The position numbers and the translations under genes are program-made. The notes under the pieces are model-generated. The model did not search any database. It worked only from the letters and a program-made list of their open reading frames with translations, and had not been told where the DNA came from. Below are positions 22,532-35,557 of a stretch of DNA of 64,000 nt, in pieces. The stretch's first letter is position 1; the number at the start of each line of letters is the position of its first letter. The stretch comes from Hyaloraphidium curvatum (lineage: Eukaryota; Monoblepharomycota; Hyaloraphidiomycetes; Hyaloraphidiales; Hyaloraphidiaceae): positions 62,001 through 126,000 of the forward strand of contig JAIVFI010000019.1 in NCBI GenBank assembly GCA_025558095.1, given 5' to 3'.

Positions 22532-23238
22532 CCGCGCCGCCTAGGCAAATGCGGAATCTTCCCGCTACCTTCTGAGTTGCATTCACATGCGATGCTTCTC
22601 AAACACTTAAGAAGCGACAGTGATGGAGCCCGTAGGCGCGCCGGTTCGCGTCGGCTCGCCTTTCTTTACTCAGGTGACAGACGCCATAGCGTAGATCGAT
22701 GCTGTTTCCGTTTCGTACGACCGTTTGTTGGGAAAGATTGAGCTGCGGCCTCGTACATGCCTAGACCGACATTAGAAACCCGGACATGCAAAGTCCAGGG
22801 TCACAAAGGCGCCGCCGCCGCGGAGGAAGCTCCAAAGCGCCACGCCGACAGTCAGCATAGTCACGACCATGGTCCTCAGAGTCGTAAATGTGACGACGAA
22901 TCCGAGGATCCGGCCCTTCCACTGGTCGACGTCCATATAGGTTTTCAGCAACGGTCGTCAGCCTCAATGAGCGCGAGGTATGCCTCCAGCCGCGAAGTCG
23001 GGGGGAAGCGCCGCCGTGCCTTTGCACAAAGCTCGCGAAGCGACCGACGGGCGGTGCGATACAGCTCCGTGACGCCCGAGATGTGCTGGTTGGCCACGGC
23101 AACGTTGACCATGTCCGACGCGGTTCCAACGCCGAGGTACGCGAACATGCCGAGGACGTACGGGACGCAGTTGCCCACGGCGACGTTGATGACAGCGGCG
23201 AGGAGGGTGCCGAGGACGTAGAAGCCGAGGTAGACGGC
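22532..23238. repeat. Segmental duplication, copy 1
   Basis: This segment matches 26270-27000 at roughly nine in ten positions by eye, starting near accaccgc and ending at gtagacggc. It includes about 240 bp beyond the stop codon as well as the 3' third of the seven-helix gene at 26.5-28.1 kb, so it arose from DNA, not mRNA. The right end joins abruptly to a MYND-finger fragment. Confidence 0.85.
22772..23238 (-). pseudogene. Truncated pseudogene of the seven-helix family (C-terminal part)
   Basis: Corresponds to the last ~155 codons of the gene at 26521-28116. Intact-looking text such as VYLGFYVLGTLLAAV and GTASDMVNVAVANQHISG is followed by a shift: a base is lost at the run encoding DDRVLKSY (agcaacggtcg against agcacacggtcg), giving an early stop. 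A 3-bp loss also removes one residue in NCVP-YVLG. The N-terminal two-thirds, with four predicted helices, is missing. Not expected to make a working membrane protein. Confidence 0.85.
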
Positions 23239-26269: not shown

Positions 26270-27000
26270 GAACCACCGCCGCCTGCGAAATCTTCCCGCT
26301 ACCTTAGAGTTGCATCACATGCGATGTTTCTCAAACACGTAAGAAGAGACGGTGATATCGCAGCGCCTGGCTCGCGTCGGCTCGCTTTTCTTTACACAAG
26401 ACCCGTTCTGAGGGGGCACTGCTGACAGTCGCCATGGCGTAGATGGATGTTGTTGTTTCCGTTTGTACACCGTTTGCTGGGAAAGATTGAGCTGCAGCCT
26501 CGTACATGCCTAGACCGACATTAGAGACCCGGACACGCAAAGTCCAGGGTAACAAAGGTGCCGCCGCCGCGGAGGATGCTCCAAAGCGCTACGCCGACAG
26601 TCAGCATCGTGACGGCCATGCTCCTCAGAGTCGCAAACGTGACGACGAAGCCGAGCACCCGGCCTTTCCACTGGTCGACGTCCATGTAGCTCTTCAGCAC
26701 ACGGTCGTCAGCCTCAATAAGCGCGAGGCATGCCTCCAGCCGCGAAGTCGGAGGGAAGCGCCGCCGTGCCTTTGCAGAAAGCTCGCGAAGCGACCGACGG
26801 GCGGTGCGATACAGCTCCGTGACGCCTGAGATGTGCTGATTGGCCACGGCAACGTTGACCATGTCCGACGCGGCTCCAACGCCGAGGTACGCGAAAATGC
26901 CGAGGACGTACGCTGGGACGCAGTTGCCCACGGCGACGTTAGTGACGGCGGCGAGGAGGGTGCCGAGGACGTAGAAGCCGAGGTAGACGGCCAGGAACTC
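26270..27000. repeat. Segmental duplication, copy 2 (intact source region)
   Basis: Partner of 22532-23238. Here it is continuous with the full seven-helix gene, so this is the likely source and the 22.5 kb copy the derived one. Differences include a ~25-bp insertion near 26400 (acccgttctgagggggcactg). Confidence 0.85.
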
Positions 27001-28116
27001 CATGAAAGTGAAGCGCTGTCGCCACAGCGCACTGAGCTCCTCGTGAAGTTGTTGGTACAGCTCGTAGTCGTCCGAAGGCTGGGCCGCCATTGCACCTTCC
27101 TTGTTGAGCGTGCCCGAGATGGGCTCGCCATGTGCGGATTTTCGAACCAGCTTCTCCCCAGGGCGGGGCTCCGAATCCAATTCCGAGAACAAGTTCCGTT
27201 CGTGGCGCGAAACCAGGGAATCCAGGGCGATCCAGACGGCACGGCGCTGTAGCCGCCGGGAGAGTTCGAGGCTGGCCACATTGGCCCGGAAAGTGGACCC
27301 CAGGATGCTGATGTACCCGTTGTTGACCCACCACAGGGCAATAATCACGACAAGGGAGAGGATGCCCCACCACGTCCCAATGGCAACTTCCCCGAACGTG
27401 ATGGCCATCGTCCACACCATGCCGAACAGGCTGCTGACCGTCAGAAGGCAGATCCTGGCCACCAAATCCAAAATGGAGTAGCCAGCAACCCTCGACATGA
27501 CGTCCCCCACGCAGGCCGGGCAGGGGCACAGCCCATCGCCGTCCTCGTGCGCGAGGAGAGGGGAACCCTCGGGTTCCTGGCCAACTAGCTCCGTCCAGCG
27601 AACGACGCCGGACAGATTATGCCCTGATACATCCCCGTCCGATCCTTTCTTGTGGACCGCGAATCGCAGGCTGTAGCGCGTGAACAGCGGCGGCAGCAAG
27701 AGCATGACCACGTTCAAGGATAGCATCGCAGAGAAGCCACCCCAGTAGTTCCGGCTCGAAAAATGGGGGAGGAGGGTGTTCGCGTGCCACAGTGCCCCCA
27801 GCATGACGAAGACGGCCCCGAGCATTAGCAAGTTGCGGAGCAGAGAGCGACGCGCCCACGGCGCCAGCCACAGATTGAGGACGACGAGGGCGTGAAGAGG
27901 TTTGCAGGCAGAAAGAATGGACAGAAACTCGGGAAGGGGGAGCTTGGGCCGCACATGCCGTTCCGCGAACACCGCGCCGAACGTTGGAGGGAGCGGAGGG
28001 GAGGCGGGGAAGAGCGCGGCCCACTCGGCGTTCGAGAATCCCGGTTGGTCGACACGGGCTTTGTCCTCAACGTCCAGCCCTAGTTCGGCGATGTGATTTG
28101 GCGGCGATTCCGCCAT
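26521..28116 (-). CDS. Seven-transmembrane protein A, GR/OR-like topology
   Basis: Intronless, 531 residues. Predicted helices at about 94-113, 126-146, 215-240, 249-271, 371-394, 399-424 and 485-516. Loops after helices 2, 4 and 6 are long and rich in Arg/Lys (for example RRLQRRAV and TARRSLREL), while loops after helices 1, 3 and 5 are short and neutral. The positive-inside rule therefore puts the N-terminus inside and the C-terminus outside, opposite to GPCRs and as in insect gustatory/odorant receptors. A CPCPAC motif lies before helix 3. Closest relative in the window is protein C (30039-31604), nearly identical over ELYQxLHEELSALWRQRFTF and helices 5-6. A divergent paralog B starts 126 bp away on the other strand. 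No Pfam family recognised; the receptor-channel idea is inference. Confidence 0.8.
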   Translation of the reverse strand: MAESPPNHIAELGLDVEDKARVDQPGFSNAEWAALFPASPPLPPTFGAVFAERHVRPKLPLPEFLSILSACKPLHALVVLNLWLAPWARRSLLRNLLMLGAVFVMLGALWHANTLLPHFSSRNYWGGFSAMLSLNVVMLLLPPLFTRYSLRFAVHKKGSDGDVSGHNLSGVVRWTELVGQEPEGSPLLAHEDGDGLCPCPACVGDVMSRVAGYSILDLVARICLLTVSSLFGMVWTMAITFGEVAIGTWWGILSLVVIIALWWVNNGYISILGSTFRANVASLELSRRLQRRAVWIALDSLVSRHERNLFSELDSEPRPGEKLVRKSAHGEPISGTLNKEGAMAAQPSDDYELYQQLHEELSALWRQRFTFMEFLAVYLGFYVLGTLLAAVTNVAVGNCVPAYVLGIFAYLGVGAASDMVNVAVANQHISGVTELYRTARRSLRELSAKARRRFPPTSRLEACLALIEADDRVLKSYMDVDQWKGRVLGFVVTFATLRSMAVTMLTVGVALWSILRGGGTFVTLDFACPGL

Positions 28117-28241
28117 GGAGCCTCAGGTTGAAGAGGGGTGCGGACCGCAGTAGCGAGTTGGCTGCCGCGCGATCGACGTCACGTTTCGTTGTCTGGCCGT
28201 CTCCCACATCTAAATCGCGGAGCCGACCGCCGAAGTCGCCC
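28117..28241. promoter_or_regulatory. Short bidirectional promoter between paralogs A and B
   Basis: Only 125 bp separate the ATGs of two divergent family members, so their promoters must overlap and the pair may be co-regulated. No defined motif seen. Confidence 0.45.
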
Positions 28242-29888
28242 ATGGAGGGCGCAACGCGTGAAGAAGCCGACAGCCGCGGCAACGGCGCGTCGGAAAAGCC
28301 GCCCCTCTCCTTCCTCACGGGGGATGAGCTCCTTTGCCTCCTGCCCGCTCCCGTGGCCCCCGCGGCCGGAATCGGCGTGCCAGCTCAAGAGGATCCCGCT
28401 GCGGCAGCCCGGAACGCGCGTCCGCTGACGGCCGCGGCGGTGAAAGAAGTCGTTGCCGCCGCGGAAGATCCGGTGCTGGAATGGTTGACGCGCATCTCTC
28501 TCGCCCTGGCCCCGTACGCGGCGCGTTCGAGGTTCCGGATCGGCCTGTGCCATCTTATCAGCATCTCTACCATCATTCCTTTCCTCTGGATTGCCGGGAT
28601 CCCGTATGGATTCGGCCGGAAACAGCTCGTTGCCACCACCGTGGCCTTCAGTCTCGAGTGCGCGTTTTATTCGTTGCTCGCTACGAACATCGGCTGGTTT
28701 GCGGGACGCCGAAGCGGGGCGCGACCGGCTCCGTCGAAGGAGGATGACCCGGAAGGAGGGGAAGCCGCAGGCGATAGCCCAGTCCCAGGCGGATTCTTTG
28801 CGGCCGCAACTCTCGACGTCTGGCCGGATTCGTCCTTCTGGCGGTACCTCATTCTCTGTCAATCCGGTGCACCCCGGAACCAGCTTTTCCTGATGCACAT
28901 TGATGCAGACGGTTCGAATTGCTGTTGCCCACGCAAATCCTGCGCCGGTTCGGTCGCATCCCGTGCCGGCCTTGTACGCAGTGTCACCCTCGCTTTCTTT
29001 TCGCTCGTGGTCTTGCTGAGCTACGTGACTAAGTTTTTTACGGCTATGGTGACCCTCGGCGGACAAATGTGGACGACCGCGTGGACGCTTGCGGGCATCC
29101 TTTGGATCCTTTCGTCTTGCAACAACGAATTTGTATCCACGTTCGGTGGTGCCGGAACCTCGGACAACCTGGCCGCGAGGGAACTTGAACGGAAACTCAC
29201 AGTCCGTGCCGTGCGTCGGTCATTGGAGGCCCTTGTGGAACGCCTTCAGGGCCTCGTGGAGGGGCCTGCTGATGCGAAGACAGCCGCATGTGAAAGATGG
29301 TACGCTTCTCTGGTTCCCCTTCTTGCAGCCAGGTGGCGACAGGACGTTCTCTTGCCGCAGTACGCCGCGCTAGCTGGAGTTTTCTTCATCGCCGAGACAA
29401 CTGCCTTCATCATTTACGTGGTACGTAACGTAATCCTGTCGATCCTCTGATGGCGTCTGAACCATCTTCAATCCTCGTTCCAGACCACGGGCAACTGCGT
29501 TCCAGTCTACGTGATCGCTCTGCTGTTGATGGGATACTCCGGTCTCATGTACCCCCTCTTCAACGCAGCGGTCGGCAACGGGCGCATCACGCAGACCACG
29601 GCCCTCCTCCGCTCGGCCTCTCTTTCCCTCAGCGAACTCGAGCTGGCGTGCACAGAAGCTCAGCAACCCCTTGCGCGCCGCATCGCGGCGCACCGGGCCA
29701 GGCTCCGCGACCTGGAGGAGGTCCACGTGGATGGTGCAGGCGTGCGGCTCTTCGGAGCGCGGGTTACGGCCAGCCTAGTGCGCAAGATAATGGCAGCCAC
29801 GGTGACGGCGGTGTTTGCAGCGTGGACGGTGCTTCGCGCCCTGGGGGTCGTGCTGACCATGGAAATGGTCTGTCCGGCGACGTCTTGA
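28242..29888 (+). CDS. Seven-transmembrane-family protein B (divergent paralog)
   Basis: Two exons, 28242-29420 and 29484-29888, intron of 63 nt; 527 residues. Relationship to A and C shows best at the splice: YV/TTGNCVPVYVIALLL aligns with NVAVGNCVPAYVLGIFA, and GRITQTTALLRSASLSL with QHISGVTELYRTARRSL. Hydrophobic segments include LCHLISISTIIPFLWIAG, VAFSLECAFYSLLAT, VTLAFFSLVVLLSYV, QMWTTAWTLAGILWIL, YAALAGVFFIAETTAFIIYV and ATVTAVFAAWTVLRAL. The N-terminus is unrelated to A and C. The in-frame frame extends upstream, but the ATG at 28242 lies after the divergent promoter and is preferred. Function unknown; same 7-helix layout inferred. Confidence 0.75.
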
Positions 29889-30038
29889 TTTTGCGATGCA
29901 CGACCAATCGCAGCACTCACTGACGCTAACGTCGCATGCAAATCGTCGCTTATCTAGAAAGTTTTGCTGAATGTGTATGATTTGGCCGTTCTATTGACGT
30001 CTGACCATGTCGCCAGCTCCGATCCCCGGCCGCCTTGC

Positions 30039-31604
30039 CTATGCAGAAAGTAAATACAGACCCGGACATGCAAAATCCGGGGTCACAAAGGTACCCCCGT
30101 TGCGAAGGATAGTCCACAGCGCCACGCCGGCCGTCAACATCGTGGCGAGCACGCTCCTCAGCGCCGCAAAGGTGACCACGAACCCGAGGATCCTGCCCTT
30201 CCACTGCTCCACGTCCGTGTAGCTCTCCAGCACCCGATCATCCGCCTCCACGAGGGCCAGGCAGGTTTCGAGCCGCGGGCTCGGGGGGAGCTGGCGCCTC
30301 GCGCCGGCGGAGATCTCGCGCAGCGCGCGGCGGGCGGATCGGTACAGCTCCGTGACCCCCGAGATGTGCTGGTTGGCCACGGCGACGTTGATCATGTCCG
30401 ACGCGGTTCCAACGCCGAGGTAGGCGAACAAGCCGAGCACGTATGTGGGAACGCAGTTGCCGACGGCGACGTTGATCACTGCGGCCAAGACGATCCCGAG
30501 GACGTAGAAGCCGAGGTAGACCGCCAGGAACTCCATGAAGGTGAAGCGCTGGCGCCAGAGCGCGCTTAGCTCCTCGTGGAGCCCCTGGTAGAGCTCGCGC
30601 TTCGAACCGTGCATCAGGGCGGGTTCGGCGACCGATCCCCAAGCAAGTTTCTCATCGGAGCCCAGCTCCGCGTCCGACGCCGCAGACAACCTCTGCTCGT
30701 GCCGCGACACGAGGGCATCCAGTGCCATCCAAACCGCACGGCGCTGCAGCCTCCGCGAGAGATCCAGGCTGGCCACGTTGGCGCGGAACTGCGCACCGAG
30801 GATGCTGACGTAACCGTTGTTGATCCACACGACGGCGATCAGCAGCACCAGGGAGAGGACGCCCCACCAAGTGCGCGAGACCTCGCGGAAGGTGATCCCC
30901 ATGGTCCACACCGTTGTGAAGAGGCCCGCGGCCGCCATCAGGCACAATCTCGCCCCCACGTCGGCGAACGAGTAGGCGGCGACCCTCGACATGACGTCCC
31001 CCACGCACGCCGGGCAGGGGCACAGGTCGTCCCCGTCCTTGTGCGCCAAAAGCGAGGCATCCGGTTCCCCGGCGACGAGTTCGGCCCAGCGGACGACCGC
31101 GGATAGGTTGTGGGCCGACATGTCGCCGTCCGGGTCCTTCCTGTAGGCCGCGAAGCGCAGCCTGTACCGGGTGAAGAGCGGCGGCAAGAAAAGCATGACG
31201 ACGTCCCAGGATACTATCGCCGCGAATCCGCCCCAGTAATTTCGGTTGGAAAAGATCGGAAGGAGGCTGTTCGCGTACCACAGCGCTCCCAGCATGACGA
31301 TATTGGCCCCAAACATAAGCACGTTGCGGAGGAGCGAGCGGCGCGCCCACGGTGCCAGCCACAAGTTGAGCACCACGAGGGCATGCAAAGATCTTGAGGC
31401 AGAGAGAATCGAGAGGAAGCGCGGCATGGGGAGCTTGGACCGCGCATGGCGTTCGCTCGCGGGTCCGAACGTCGGGGGAAGTGGGGGGGAGGACGGGAAG
31501 AGCGCGGCCCACTCCGCGTCCGAGAATCCCGGCGGGCCGCAATTCGGCTTCGTCTCGATGTCGAGCGAACACTCTGCGCGGCCGTTTGGCGGCGGGTCCG
31601 CCAT
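30039..31604 (-). CDS. Seven-transmembrane protein C (close paralog of A)
   Basis: Intronless, 521 residues, co-linear with A from MADPPPN and EWAALFPSSPPLPPTFG to GGTFVTPDFACPGL, with the same seven hydrophobic segments, the CPCPAC motif and the basic inner loops. It lacks about 17 residues of the loop after helix 4 relative to A and carries a five-residue C-terminal extension (YLLSA). Strongest conservation is in the helix 5-6 region (MEFLAVYLGFYVLG, NQHISGVTELYR), weaker in the N-terminal half; this suggests constraint on a C-terminal functional core. Separated from B by 150 bp, tail to tail. Confidence 0.8.
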   Translation of the reverse strand: MADPPPNGRAECSLDIETKPNCGPPGFSDAEWAALFPSSPPLPPTFGPASERHARSKLPMPRFLSILSASRSLHALVVLNLWLAPWARRSLLRNVLMFGANIVMLGALWYANSLLPIFSNRNYWGGFAAIVSWDVVMLFLPPLFTRYRLRFAAYRKDPDGDMSAHNLSAVVRWAELVAGEPDASLLAHKDGDDLCPCPACVGDVMSRVAAYSFADVGARLCLMAAAGLFTTVWTMGITFREVSRTWWGVLSLVLLIAVVWINNGYVSILGAQFRANVASLDLSRRLQRRAVWMALDALVSRHEQRLSAASDAELGSDEKLAWGSVAEPALMHGSKRELYQGLHEELSALWRQRFTFMEFLAVYLGFYVLGIVLAAVINVAVGNCVPTYVLGLFAYLGVGTASDMINVAVANQHISGVTELYRSARRALREISAGARRQLPPSPRLETCLALVEADDRVLESYTDVEQWKGRILGFVVTFAALRSVLATMLTAGVALWTILRNGGTFVTPDFACPGLYLLSA

Positions 31605-31988: not shown

Positions 31989-34900
31989 ATGGCGTCGCCG
32001 CCGCCGGCCGGGCCCGGAGCCGCGGGCGCCGGCGGGCCGCTGCCTGAGCCGCCGCGGCCGGCGCGCGTGGTCACGCTGACGGACGTCGACGCGGGGGAGA
32101 CGGTGCTCGCGCCGCCCGCCACGCCCGACACGGAGCTCCCGCCGTACTCGGCCGCGCCCGCCGCCGGCGAGGCGTCGTCGGGCGTCGCGCGGCTGCGTGT
32201 GTGGGAGGCGCTGGCAGCAGACTCGGACGACGACTCGCTCGGCTCGCGGGGGTCGCGGTCGCCCAGCCCCGACACGCTGTCGCGGCCGGCCGATCAGAGC
32301 TCCGATCGCGGCGACCATCTGAGCAGCCCGAGAGATGGCAGCCAGTCGCGGAGCGCGTCGCCGGGCCCGTTCTCGCGTGCCGAGCAGGCCGCCCGCATGG
32401 GCCTATCGGGGCTTTCGCTAGAGCCGCGCAAGGCGCTGTCGGAGGCGTGGACTCTCCCGGCGTCGTTCGACGAGAAGAAGGTGCAGCCGCCTCGGACGCC
32501 GACGGCCCCGCCCCGGACGGGGTCGGCCAGCCCGGTCTTTTCCAGCAAACCGGGGCGGAACTTGAAAGGTGGAGAGCTGTACGGCACGCTCAAGATCGAG
32601 AGTAAGTGCTCGCTGGTTGCTAGTTTAATGTTACTTTGTGCTCATCGTTCATCTACTCGCAACTCTCCTTCTCTGCGGTCGCTAGTCGTCAGCGTCACGG
32701 ACCTCCCCGTGCGGCGCCGTTCGACCCTCACCAAGGCACTCTTGCTCAACCAGAAGCCCGAGCGCCGGTGGACGCCTTTTGTCGTGGTCTCGTACGGTGC
32801 GTCGACCTACAAGACAAAGGTCCGCGCCCAGCTCCCTGTGCCCTACGGCTCCGACACGGCCTCGGTGGTCTTCAACGCCAACATGCCCGACGTCGCCGTG
32901 CTCCGCTCCCAGCTGCACTGGGACGTGGTCTTCTCCCTCTGGGACTCGCAGGCCATCGGAACCAACAAGGCCATCGGGACCAGCCTGAGCGTGGAGGTCG
33001 AGGACCTCGTGGACCCCGTGCAGCGAGACGGCGGCGGCTACTGGGAGACGTCGCGGCAGGCCCCGCCGGAGCGCCGGAGCTTCGACGACGTGCAGCGGCC
33101 CGTCACCCCGCCGAGCATGCCGGACGACGGCGTCCCCGTCGCCCGTGCCAAGTCGTGGACCAACCTGGACGTTTTCGACGGGAGCCAGGCGGACATTGAT
33201 CCTCCTTCGCCCACGTCGCGGACAACCGCGGACCTCAACCTGATGATCCCCTACCCGACCACCGACGAGGTGCCGCTGGCGATGCCTGGCCCCAGCGCCG
33301 GCAACGGCAAGCGAAAGGGCTGGCTCCGCTCCCGGCGCACCCGCTCGCGGTCGGCCTCCCCCTCGCCCGCCAAATCCTCGGGCCAGACCTCTGGCGGGTC
33401 GGACCAGGAATCCGACCGCGCGGACCGCAAGGCCTTCCGCCGGCCCATGTCGCCGCTGTTCCGCCGCTCGGGGTCGTTCACGCCCCCGGCGTCGCCGGCG
33501 ATCCCGGGCCTGCGCTTCCCGGTGATGAGGGAGAAGAAGCTGCTGGTGGAGCAGCCGCCGATCGTGGATTCGGACGGGAGGGTGGAGGAGCTGCCGCCCA
33601 TCACGCTCAACATCCGGTACGGGTTCAGCCCGAGGTTCCGTGGGTTGCTCTTTCCTTGCAAACTGGCACAGCAGCTCTGCTCACTGGTCGATTCCGCCTT
33701 TCAGATCTCATCCGCAACTTTATCCTCACCGTGCTCCACAACATCCGCGCCCGGCAGCTCGCCACCGGGTCCCCCATCGGCGCCCCGAACCAGATGATCG
33801 ACCCCACCGCGCCCATCACGCACATCTCCATCGTCGACGTCCTCCTCATCAACGCCGAACGGCTGGGCGGCTGGTTCGCCGACGAGGACCTGGACGCCAT
33901 CTTCGTGGGCCGGGATGAGATCACGGTCGACGAGTTTGTGGAGCGCTGGGACGCAAGGGACTGGGAATCGCGCGAGGCCGAGCTCCCCCCGAGGCCGCCC
34001 AGCCCCGGACCGAAGAGCAAGGCGGCGGGCAAGGAGAAGGAAGGGAACGGGAACGGGTCCGCGTCGGCGGCGCCGGGGACGCCGGCACCCGAGGATGCCT
34101 TTGCCGAGCTGGCCTGCTTCATCTGCGAGCAGCCCTTCCCCCCCGCCGATCCGACCTCTGCGCTGCCCTACTCGGTGCAGCAGCTGAACCACCTCCTCGT
34201 CTGCGCCAGCAGGGATTACTCCGCCGCCGCGACGAGCATGCTCAAGCGCCGCGAGTTCCTCACCGAATCCGCCGCCGCCCGGGGCCTCTACACCTCGCTG
34301 CTCGCGCGCCTGGGGCTGGGCACCTACCGCGTCGGCAAGCACGAGGGGTTCATCCTCGTGCAGAACCGCGAGACGGGGCAGCTGGAGGAGGAGTACATCC
34401 CGTCCTACGTCCGGCTCGGGATCCAGCTGCTCTACCGGAGCCGCGTGTCGCGGTCCATCGTCGAGACGAACACCATCGCCGGGCTGTTCCGCAACACCAC
34501 CGCTGGGCACGGGGCGCGGTACGACGACCCGCGGTCGGCGTCGGGGATCGCAAAGTTCATCCGGACGTACCGGATCAACGTGGACGAGGTGGAGAAGCCG
34601 GTGGCCGAGTACAGGACGCTGAACGAGTTCTTCACGCGGAGGCTCAGGGCCGGGGCGAGGAAGCTCGACGCGCCCGGGGACCCGGGGGTGCTGGTGTCCA
34701 TGGCGGACTGCAGGCTGACGTGCTTCGCGTCGGTGAACGAGGCGACGCAGGTGTGGATCAAGGGGTCGGGGTTCACCATCACTAGGCTGCTGGGCGGCGA
34801 TGCGGCGATGGGGAAGGAGTTTGCGGACTCGACGGTGGTGATCTTCAGGTGCGAGGCGAGCGCAGGCGAGGTGTTTCGTTGCCTTGACACTTCGCTGGCT

Positions 34901-35557
34901 CTTCTTGGCAGACTGGCACCCTGCGACTACCATCGATTCCATTCGCCGGTCGACGGAAAGGTCGTGGGGTTCGTGCCGGTCAAGAGCCCTGGACTATAGT
35001 GAGTCGGTTGCCTGCAATAGCAGATGGAGTCCTAACAATCGATCTCTTCTCACTCCTAGCTATACCGTCAACCCGGTGGGTAGCTTTCCGCATTCTCTCC
35101 TCCGATCATTCTGACTGTTTCGCGGCATTCAGATGGCCGTCCGCTCCCCCGTCGACGTCTTTGGCGACAACGTGCGCGAGATCTGCTACGTCGACACGGG
35201 CCCCGACCGGTTCGGCCTCGTGGCGATCGTGGCCATCGGCGCCATGCTTGTCGGCAGCATCGTGTGGACGGTCAAGGAGGGGCAGGAGCTAAAGCGCATG
35301 GACGAGATGGGCATGTTCAAGTTCGGCGGGAGCACGGGTGGGTCTCCTCTCTCCATGCGTGCTTATTGTATCTGACTCGTTTTCACCCTACAGTCGTCAT
35401 GCTGATCCAGAAGGGGATCGCTCAGCTGGACGAGGATCTGCTTGCCAACAGCGCCAAGGCCCTGGAGACCGTGGTGCAGGTCGGCAACAGGATCGGGGAG
35501 CTCGTGCACGGGAACGGGGGAGACTGGGAGGAGCAGGGAGATGCGGGTGCTGGTTGA
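31989..35557 (+). CDS. PSD2: Phosphatidylserine decarboxylase, PSD2 type with C2 domain
   Basis: Seven exons: 31989-32601, 32686-33639, 33705-34848, 34912-34998, 35060-35075, 35133-35337, 35394-35557; 1060 residues, close to yeast Psd2. Exon 5 is a 16-nt microexon. Layout: disordered Ser/Pro head; C2 domain (IVSVTDLPV, FVVVSYGASTYKTKV, VLRSQLHWDVVFSLWD) interrupted by a Ser/Arg-rich insert; then the catalytic part with LNEFFTRRL, DCRLTCF, IKGSGFTITRLL, DYHRFHSPVDG, YTVNPMAV and the self-cleavage motif GGST near the C-terminus, where Ser becomes the pyruvoyl group. It converts phosphatidylserine to phosphatidylethanolamine in Golgi/endosomal membranes (family knowledge). The GGST is split by the last intron (acceptor side V). 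A choline/ethanolamine kinase gene is 14 kb away. Confidence 0.94.

What the first reader, a model, noticed from the sequence alone, without database searches (positions are those of the whole stretch)
26521..31604. Cluster of seven-helix proteins with inverted (N-inside) topology: candidate chemoreceptor/ion-channel family
Seen: three neighbouring genes encode ~525-residue proteins with seven hydrophobic segments. In protein A, the N-terminus and the loops after helices 2, 4 and 6 are long and basic, while the loops after helices 1, 3 and 5 are 4-12 residues. Known: insect gustatory and odorant receptors and their GRL homologues have this N-in, C-out layout with large inner loops after helices 4 and 6. 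Inferred: the family could be a highly diverged GRL-type ligand-gated channel or an unrelated 7-helix invention. Strongest conservation between A and C is in helices 5-6 and the loop before helix 7, the part that forms the pore and anchor in ORs. I recognise no named family.
Basis: partly seen in the sequence, partly recalled or inferred. Interest (0 to 1): 0.88.

Follow-up and report, generated by a model that had tools for sequence, protein, structure and literature searches.

The report
Huge inverted seven-helix family in fungus
Three neighbouring genes belong to an unnamed family of membrane proteins with a seven-helix core, oriented the opposite way from ordinary receptors, that has multiplied to roughly two hundred or more copies in one single-celled fungus and looks like a sensory receptor repertoire, although its fold and function remain unproven.

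Summary
The genes are real: A 26521-28116(-), C 30039-31604(-), B 28242-29888(+, one small intron). The genome is almost certainly the fungus Hyaloraphidium curvatum. Six capped protein searches give 222 merged loci of this family on 44 of 55 contigs. Word-based protein searches returned no other species; Pfam, NCBIfam and PDB sequences gave nothing significant.

Over 51 aligned members a seven-helix core recurs (TM2-TM7 in 51 of 51, TM1 in 47-49). Charges put its C-terminus outside, which argues against a GPCR. A further hydrophobic stretch before TM1 leaves open whether the N-terminus itself is inside. In 12 of 12 close pairs, helices 1-6 vary more than helix 7 and the cytoplasmic helices: a conserved pore or coupling part under a variable sensing bundle would look so. 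Hallmarks are a cytosolic H-x3-D-x2-C-x-C-x2-4-C motif (probable metal site) and paired outer cysteines (probable disulfide).

Membership in the insect OR/GR (GRL/7TMIC) superfamily is not shown: the helix-7 motif is absent in 51 of 51, profile comparison is not significant, and the decisive fold test could not run. Best reading: a very large chemoreceptor-like repertoire that works like, and may or may not descend from, 7TM ion channels.

The parts
26521..28116 (-). Gene A: 531-aa protein with seven-helix core, intronless
   Evidence: Single ORF; 73% identity to C; dN/dS 0.205; 222 merged family loci in the same genome
28242..29420 (+). Gene B, exon 1 (start MEGATREE...), divergent from A with 125 bases between the two start codons
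   Evidence: ORF 27984-29450 with ATG at 28242; relatives at G000:C9:71963 (61% identity) and C30:488897 (64%)
29421..29483 (+). 63-base intron of B (GTACGT...CAG), chosen from several in-frame GT-AG options
   Evidence: One search lists 11 in-frame options in all; relative L069 is interrupted at the same place, before TTGNC. Nearby donors, such as 29430, are not excluded
29484..29888 (+). Gene B, exon 2 (EL3 Cys, TM6, IL3, TM7, C-terminal Cys); ends tail-to-tail with C
   Evidence: Frame continues to ...MEMVCPATS
30039..31604 (-). Gene C: 521-aa paralogue of A
   Evidence: Single ORF; 73% identity to A
27835..27951 (-). A residues 56-94: hydrophobic or amphipathic stretch before TM1, candidate re-entrant segment or eighth helix
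   Evidence: Family-mean window hydropathy 0.59-0.79 against minima of 0.10-0.27 for the core helices; picked in 20-44 of 51 members by threshold
27511..27549 (-). A residues 190-202: H-x3-D-x2-C-P-C-x2-C motif in inner loop 1, probable metal site
   Evidence: H190, D194, C197, C202 in 51 of 51 and C199 in 50 of 51 aligned members
26920..26922 (-). A Cys399 in outer loop 3, probable disulfide with Cys528
   Evidence: 51 of 51 members
26566..26652 (-). A residues 489-517: TM7, the most conserved of the helices (G489, R498, T506, R516)
   Evidence: Mean column entropy 1.51 bits against 2.5-3.0 for TM1-6; G489 and T506 51 of 51, R498 50 of 51
26533..26535 (-). A Cys528 in the outer C-tail
   Evidence: 50 of 51 members
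22567..23238 (-). Truncated, disrupted copy of the 3' part of A, with A's 3' flank (described only)
   Evidence: blastn 92% identity over 22675-23238 and 82.5% over 22567-22669 (the latter to A's 3' flank); the tblastn match changes frame and runs on weakly to 23565

Best explanation
A, B and C are three members of a lineage-specific repertoire (222 merged loci found) of surface receptor subunits in the fungus Hyaloraphidium curvatum. They most likely work as ligand-gated channel subunits in the manner of insect OR/GR-type 7TM ion channels. Each has a seven-helix core whose first helix starts on the inner side and whose C-terminus is outside (supported statistically). Helices 1-6, the fast-evolving part, would form the variable ligand pocket (inferred). 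Helix 7 and the cytoplasmic stretches after TM4, before TM5, after TM6 and before TM7 are the conserved part and would form the pore lining and the subunit anchor (inferred). An outer-loop cysteine (399) and a C-terminal cysteine (528) would be disulfide-linked, pinning the outer end of helix 7 (inferred from conservation and topology). The cytosolic H/D/C/C/C motif between helices 2 and 3 would hold a metal ion, probably zinc, that shapes or gates the inner face (inferred). Whether the family descends from GRLs or arose separately is left open.
For: Topology: family-average profile and K+R asymmetry; TM2-TM7 found in 51 of 51 and TM1 in 47-49 of 51; 47 of 51 members agree in a second charge count. 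Size: 222 merged loci on 44 contigs from six own-genome searches, rough Chao-type estimate 345. 55 of the 60 loci fetched have no stop in the best-matching frame. Conservation: TM7 75%, cytoplasmic helices 64%, TM1-6 46% identity in 12 close pairs (44-73% identical overall), 12 of 12 in this direction, Wilcoxon p 0.0005 each. Star-like tree with median terminal branch 0.77, as expected of a birth-and-death receptor family. Pro+Gly is low (3-8%) in the four cytoplasmic stretches and high (27-29%) in the linkers between them, as expected if TM4-TM6 and a pre-TM7 helix project into the cytosol. Purifying selection: dN/dS 0.205 for A-C and 0.271 for a second pair.
Against: No structure, no electrophysiology and no expression data. 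No significant sequence or profile similarity to any OR/GR protein. The stretch before TM1 is scored as a helix in 20-44 of 51 members depending on threshold, and total helix counts vary, so an eight-helix protein with its N-terminus outside is not excluded. Helical periodicity of the cytoplasmic and N-terminal stretches was not significant in any of 7 stretches tested, for either measure. Four of 51 members do not show the charge asymmetry in the flank count. H. curvatum is described as lacking a flagellate stage (recalled), so classical chemotaxis is not an obvious use. Metal-site-like residues could also point to an enzyme or transporter. Confidence was lowered from 0.42 to 0.40.
Confidence: 0.4

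Rival explanations
1. True, highly diverged members of the GRL/7TMIC superfamily: same fold and common descent with insect ORs and GRs, massively expanded in one fungus. (A special case of the best explanation; its odds overlap with it.)
For: Resembles the layout criteria for unicellular GRLs: seven TMs, inner loops longer than outer, inner side before TM1 (criteria read in PMC7746228 section 5). Chytrid fungi already have one candidate GRL each in two Spizellomyces species, with only one of four TM7-motif positions conserved (passages). The extra stretch before TM1 resembles the re-entrant N-terminal segment noted in that paper. TM7 is the most conserved helix, and an invariant T506 lies in its second half.
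Against: TM7 motif absent in 51 of 51. hhalign of the C-terminal half against seven OR/GR sequences: probability 0.31%, E 0.19, and 30 of 200 segment-preserving shuffles score as well. PF08395 and PF12056 found nothing in the genome, though the control genomes were silent too.
Confidence: 0.32
2. A new family of transporters, lipid-modifying enzymes or other membrane enzymes that use the conserved H/D/C/C/C site and the conserved polar residues of helix 7.
For: H190, D194, C197, C202, R292, N426, T506 in 51 of 51 and C199, R498 in 50 of 51 could be catalytic or metal-binding.
Against: The motif lies in a soluble loop, not in the membrane. Helices 1-6 are less conserved than TM7 and the cytoplasmic helices, whereas a transport path or active site in the membrane would be conserved. 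Hundreds of diverged copies in one genome is unusual for an enzyme.
Confidence: 0.2
3. A rapidly diversifying recognition family (self/non-self or surface variation) rather than a sensor of small molecules.
For: Large copy number, broken copies (5 of 60 fetched loci with stops; truncated copy at 22567-23238), scattered loci (155 of 184 clusters single).
Against: Outer loops are only 8-11 columns long and comparatively conserved (EL1 65%, EL2 55%, EL3 72% identity in close pairs), so there is almost no exposed variable surface. Variation sits inside the membrane. If the stretch before TM1 crosses, the N-terminus (48% identity) would be exposed.
Confidence: 0.08
4. G-protein-coupled receptors, for example a chytrid analogue of the expanded Pth11 receptors.
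For: Seven-helix core; fungal GPCR classes expand in a lineage-specific way (PMC12842992, passages).
Against: Charge distribution puts the C-terminus outside; no GPCR Pfam match in 34 members or 3 consensus sequences.
Confidence: 0.03

Closest known systems
Gustatory-receptor-like proteins / 7TM ion channels (insect OR, GR, Orco; GRLs of Spizellomyces and protists; plant DUF3537; PHTF)
   Same: Seven-helix core with C-terminus out, short outer and long inner loops, a pre-TM1 hydrophobic stretch, TM7 the most conserved helix, large species-specific repertoires in insects (last point recalled)
   Different: No TM7 motif in 51 of 51; no significant sequence or profile similarity; longer (A 531 aa, C 521 aa); long inner loop 1 with an H/D/C/C/C motif; an outer Cys pair; 222 merged loci in one single-celled species; fold untested
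Pth11-type and other fungal GPCRs
   Same: Expanded seven-helix families in fungi (Pth11-like are the most abundant class of fungal GPCR, PMC12842992 passages)
   Different: Predicted orientation is inverted; no Pfam match; that paper's main text does not name Hyaloraphidium
PAQR / haemolysin III-type receptors
   Same: Seven helices with N-in topology and a metal site (recalled)
   Different: No Pfam match; here the candidate metal residues are in a soluble inner loop

Membership tests
GRL / 7TMIC superfamily | Predicted seven transmembrane domains | tested here: met
   Core TM2-TM7 in 51 of 51, TM1 in 47-49 of 51; family average. Caveats: boundaries set by hand, and a further pre-TM1 stretch scores as a helix in 20-44 of 51
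GRL / 7TMIC superfamily | Intracellular N-terminus | tested here: inconclusive
   The side just before TM1 is inside by K+R asymmetry (47 of 51 members), but the N-terminus itself would be outside if the pre-TM1 stretch crosses
GRL / 7TMIC superfamily | Inner loops longer than outer loops | tested here: met
   Inner 73, 77, 62 columns; outer 11, 9, 8
GRL / 7TMIC superfamily | Length about 350-500 aa | tested here: inconclusive
   A 531, C 521, B 527 aa. The other aligned members span 480-588 aa, but I chose their start codons to fall within 470-590
GRL / 7TMIC superfamily | Top hit to a GRL or DUF3537 in reciprocal search, or no similarity to other families | tested here: inconclusive
   No significant similarity to any other family, but none to GRLs either; protein searches returned only this fungus
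GRL / 7TMIC superfamily | TM7 motif (T/S)Yhhhhh(Q/K/E)(F/L/M), described as diagnostic but not definitive | tested here: not met
   0 of 51; at best the invariant T506 matches one of four positions
GRL / 7TMIC superfamily | HMM-HMM similarity to animal GRLs | tested here: not met
   Probability 0.31%, 30 of 200 shuffles as good; only seven insect reference sequences, C-terminal half only, so a weak test
[not shown]
   Structure prediction busy in 17 tries, then switched off
GRL / 7TMIC superfamily | Tetrameric ligand-gated cation channel | not testable with these tools
   Needs experiment
GPCR (fungal classes) | C-terminus inside, seven-helix core starting from outside | tested here: not met
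   (a prediction from charges)
GPCR (fungal classes) | Match to a curated GPCR family model | tested here: not met
   None in 34 members or 3 consensus sequences
PAQR | Match to the Pfam family of PAQR/HlyIII proteins | tested here: not met
   No such family listed

The most novel reading that the evidence does not exclude
A single-celled fungus independently invented an inverted seven-helix receptor-channel family, unrelated to insect ORs and GRs, with its own metal-bearing inner domain and an outer disulfide, and expanded it to hundreds of genes. That would be a second, convergent origin of the inverted seven-helix chemoreceptor plan and one of the larger receptor repertoires of a unicellular organism.
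Probability: 0.3. Interest if true: 0.87.

Novelty: new variant of a known kind. Interest (0 to 1): 0.68.

Why it matters
Benton and colleagues argue that the insect-type 7TM channels date from the last common eukaryotic ancestor, yet the single-celled species in their 2020 table have one to six copies each. A fungus with some two hundred loci of inverted seven-helix proteins would show either that this superfamily can become a large sensory repertoire outside animals, or that the plan arose twice. Either way it gives a testable system for what microbes without a nervous system sense with such proteins, and a sharp new sequence marker (H-x3-D-x2-C-x-C-x2-4-C plus paired outer cysteines) with which to look for relatives.

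Tried and rejected

Profile search of PDB sequences found nothing credible (best E 0.16). NCBIfam hits were single-member and weak (best E 0.014). Pfam hits were single-member and weak (best E 0.061). Helical periodicity was not significant. Profile comparison with OR/GR sequences was not significant. Searches for PF08395 and PF12056 in the genome are uninformative because the controls were silent. The alignment-based protein search found only A and C. A GPCR was rejected on topology.

Of 60 loci fetched entered the 51-row alignment with A, B and C. Dropped: 5 with stops (L009, L010, L011, L031, L037), 3 short (L012, L023, L053), 4 without a start codon in my length window (L025, L026, L039, L050). 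The locus set was chosen by similarity to A. Alignment A1 used 34 of these 51 rows. The 12 close pairs were picked by me from the tree. The count of 222 comes from capped searches (81-105 candidates scored each) and a merging rule of 350 bases, so it may contain a few double counts, and it includes fragments.
Full report
What is there. A (26521-28116, -) and C (30039-31604, -) are intronless and 73% identical. B (28242-29888, +) lies between them, head-to-head with A and tail-to-tail with C, and has one small intron, best placed at 29421-29483. A relative of B on another contig is interrupted at the same place; nearby donors are not excluded. A and C evolve under purifying selection (dN/dS 0.205; a second close pair 0.271). 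A truncated, disrupted copy of the 3' part of A sits at 22567-23238.

Whose genome. The 12 protein-database relatives outside the window's own two are all hypothetical proteins of the fungus Hyaloraphidium curvatum. Seven of the nine distinct contig lengths of those records (472503, 786496, 589908, 607112, 752701, 937392 and 749587 bases) equal contig lengths of the window's own assembly; the other two (206727, 558393) belong to contigs that I did not fetch or could not match. The window's contig is given as 721311 and 720000, a small discrepancy I did not resolve. Taxonomy places the species in Monoblepharomycota.

Size of the family. A protein search of the genome with A gave 135 match pieces. 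Searches with five further members, each scoring 84-105 candidates, kept giving new places: 27, 30, 29, 11 and 44 new loci (tallied). Merged, they are 222 loci on 44 of 55 contigs, with a rough Chao-type estimate of 345. The queries are not independent, a few loci may be split, and fragments are included, so 222 counts loci found, not intact genes. 155 of 184 clusters are single genes. Of 60 fetched loci, 55 have no stop in the best-matching frame. Median pairwise identity of 51 aligned members is 29%, and the tree is star-like with long tips: an old, much-diversified family.

Topology. Averaged over 51 members, hydropathy passes threshold in five stretches, two of them long enough for two helices each, which makes seven (boundaries by hand). 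Member by member, TM2-TM7 are found in 51 of 51 and TM1 in 47-49, but a stretch before TM1 also scores as a helix in 20, 35 or 44 of 51 at three thresholds, and total counts vary. Inner loops are long and outer loops 8-11 columns. K+R is 7.3, 10.3 and 8.6 per inner loop and 4.3 in residues 67-94, against 0.9, 0.4, 0.0 and 0.5 outside; residues 1-66 carry 4.4 K+R and 7.5 D+E. A second count over flanks gives the same sign in 47 of 51 members. So the core runs from inside to outside with the C-terminus out; the position of the N-terminus depends on the pre-TM1 stretch. In known GRLs such a stretch is read as a re-entrant segment (PMC7746228 section 5).

Conservation. H190, D194, C197 and C202 of an H-x3-D-x2-C-x-C-x2-4-C motif in inner loop 1 are present in 51 of 51 members and C199 in 50; the exact spacing is found in 48 of 51, B, L047 and L066 departing from it. 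Cys399 (outer loop 3) is in 51 of 51 and Cys528 (C-tail) in 50 of 51. With the predicted topology both lie outside, where a disulfide is possible. R292, N426, G489 and T506 are in 51 of 51, R498 in 50. TM7 has the lowest mean entropy of the helices, 1.51 bits against 2.5-3.0 for TM1-6; outer loop 3 is lower still at 1.40. In 12 close pairs chosen from the tree, mean identity is 75% in TM7, 64% in cytoplasmic helices and 46% in TM1-6, with the same direction in 12 of 12. Membrane helices 1-6 being the faster part is natural for a variable ligand pocket above a conserved pore and anchor; that reading is inference. Helical periodicity gave no support in any of 7 stretches.

Is it a GRL. The published screen for unicellular GRLs used five criteria (PMC7746228 section 5). 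Seven helices and longer inner loops are met, the inner N-terminus is likely but not settled, length overlaps at best with the upper end, and the similarity criterion is empty (no significant hit to anything). The TM7 motif is absent in 51 of 51, though the same paper calls it diagnostic but not definitive and reports only one of four positions in the fungal GRLs (passages). A profile comparison of the C-terminal half with seven OR/GR sequences aligned TM7 with TM7 over 16 columns only, at probability 0.31% and E 0.19; 30 of 200 shuffles that keep helices and loops in place scored as well. The 2023 structural screen found no fungal proteins, noting that chytrids were not surveyed (passage). 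I therefore do not file the family under GRL/7TMIC. The statement that it works like one rests on topology, the conservation pattern and family size.

What could not be done. The protein database search depends on shared short words and is insensitive, so absence of relatives in other species means only that no close relative was found. In the held PMC library, searches on Hyaloraphidium and on GRLs and chemoreceptors in fungi listed no title that describes this family; some listings were partial (20 of 41, 20 of 35, 15 of 546). I saw only passages or single sections of four papers: PMC7746228 and PMC9998090 (passages plus section 5, of the latter part 1 of 2), PMC12842992 and PMC12115818 (passages).

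Verdict. Observation partly confirmed (genes, core and loops yes; 'basic' and exactly seven with qualification). Interpretation partly supported. An orphan family with an inverted seven-helix core, 222 loci found in one fungus, most likely a receptor-channel repertoire, with deep homology or convergence to insect-type channels undecided.

Noticed in passing
window 22567-23238 (-): A truncated, disrupted duplicate of A's 3' part together with A's 3' flank (92% and 82.5% nucleotide identity), showing local duplication and decay.
   Followed up: partly
window 33656-34999 (+): ORF matching phosphatidylserine decarboxylase (PF02666, E 9.4e-17), next to the cluster; no evident link to it.
   Followed up: partly
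G000:C18:778-7887 (+): Three close tandem paralogues of P0010 near the start of a contig, each matching in two pieces that meet at about query residue 386; two of the three with a gap of 41-47 bases, possibly an intron.
   Followed up: no
L069 and L070 (B relatives): L069 shares B's intron before the EL3 Cys; both have a CCCPR-x-SCAG form of the metal motif; in L070 the long open frame departs from the family sequence before TM5.
   Followed up: partly
window 26569-26571 (A residue 516): A conserved Arg/Lys (46 R and 5 K of 51) at the outer end of TM7, against the positive-inside rule; it may line an outer vestibule.
   Followed up: no
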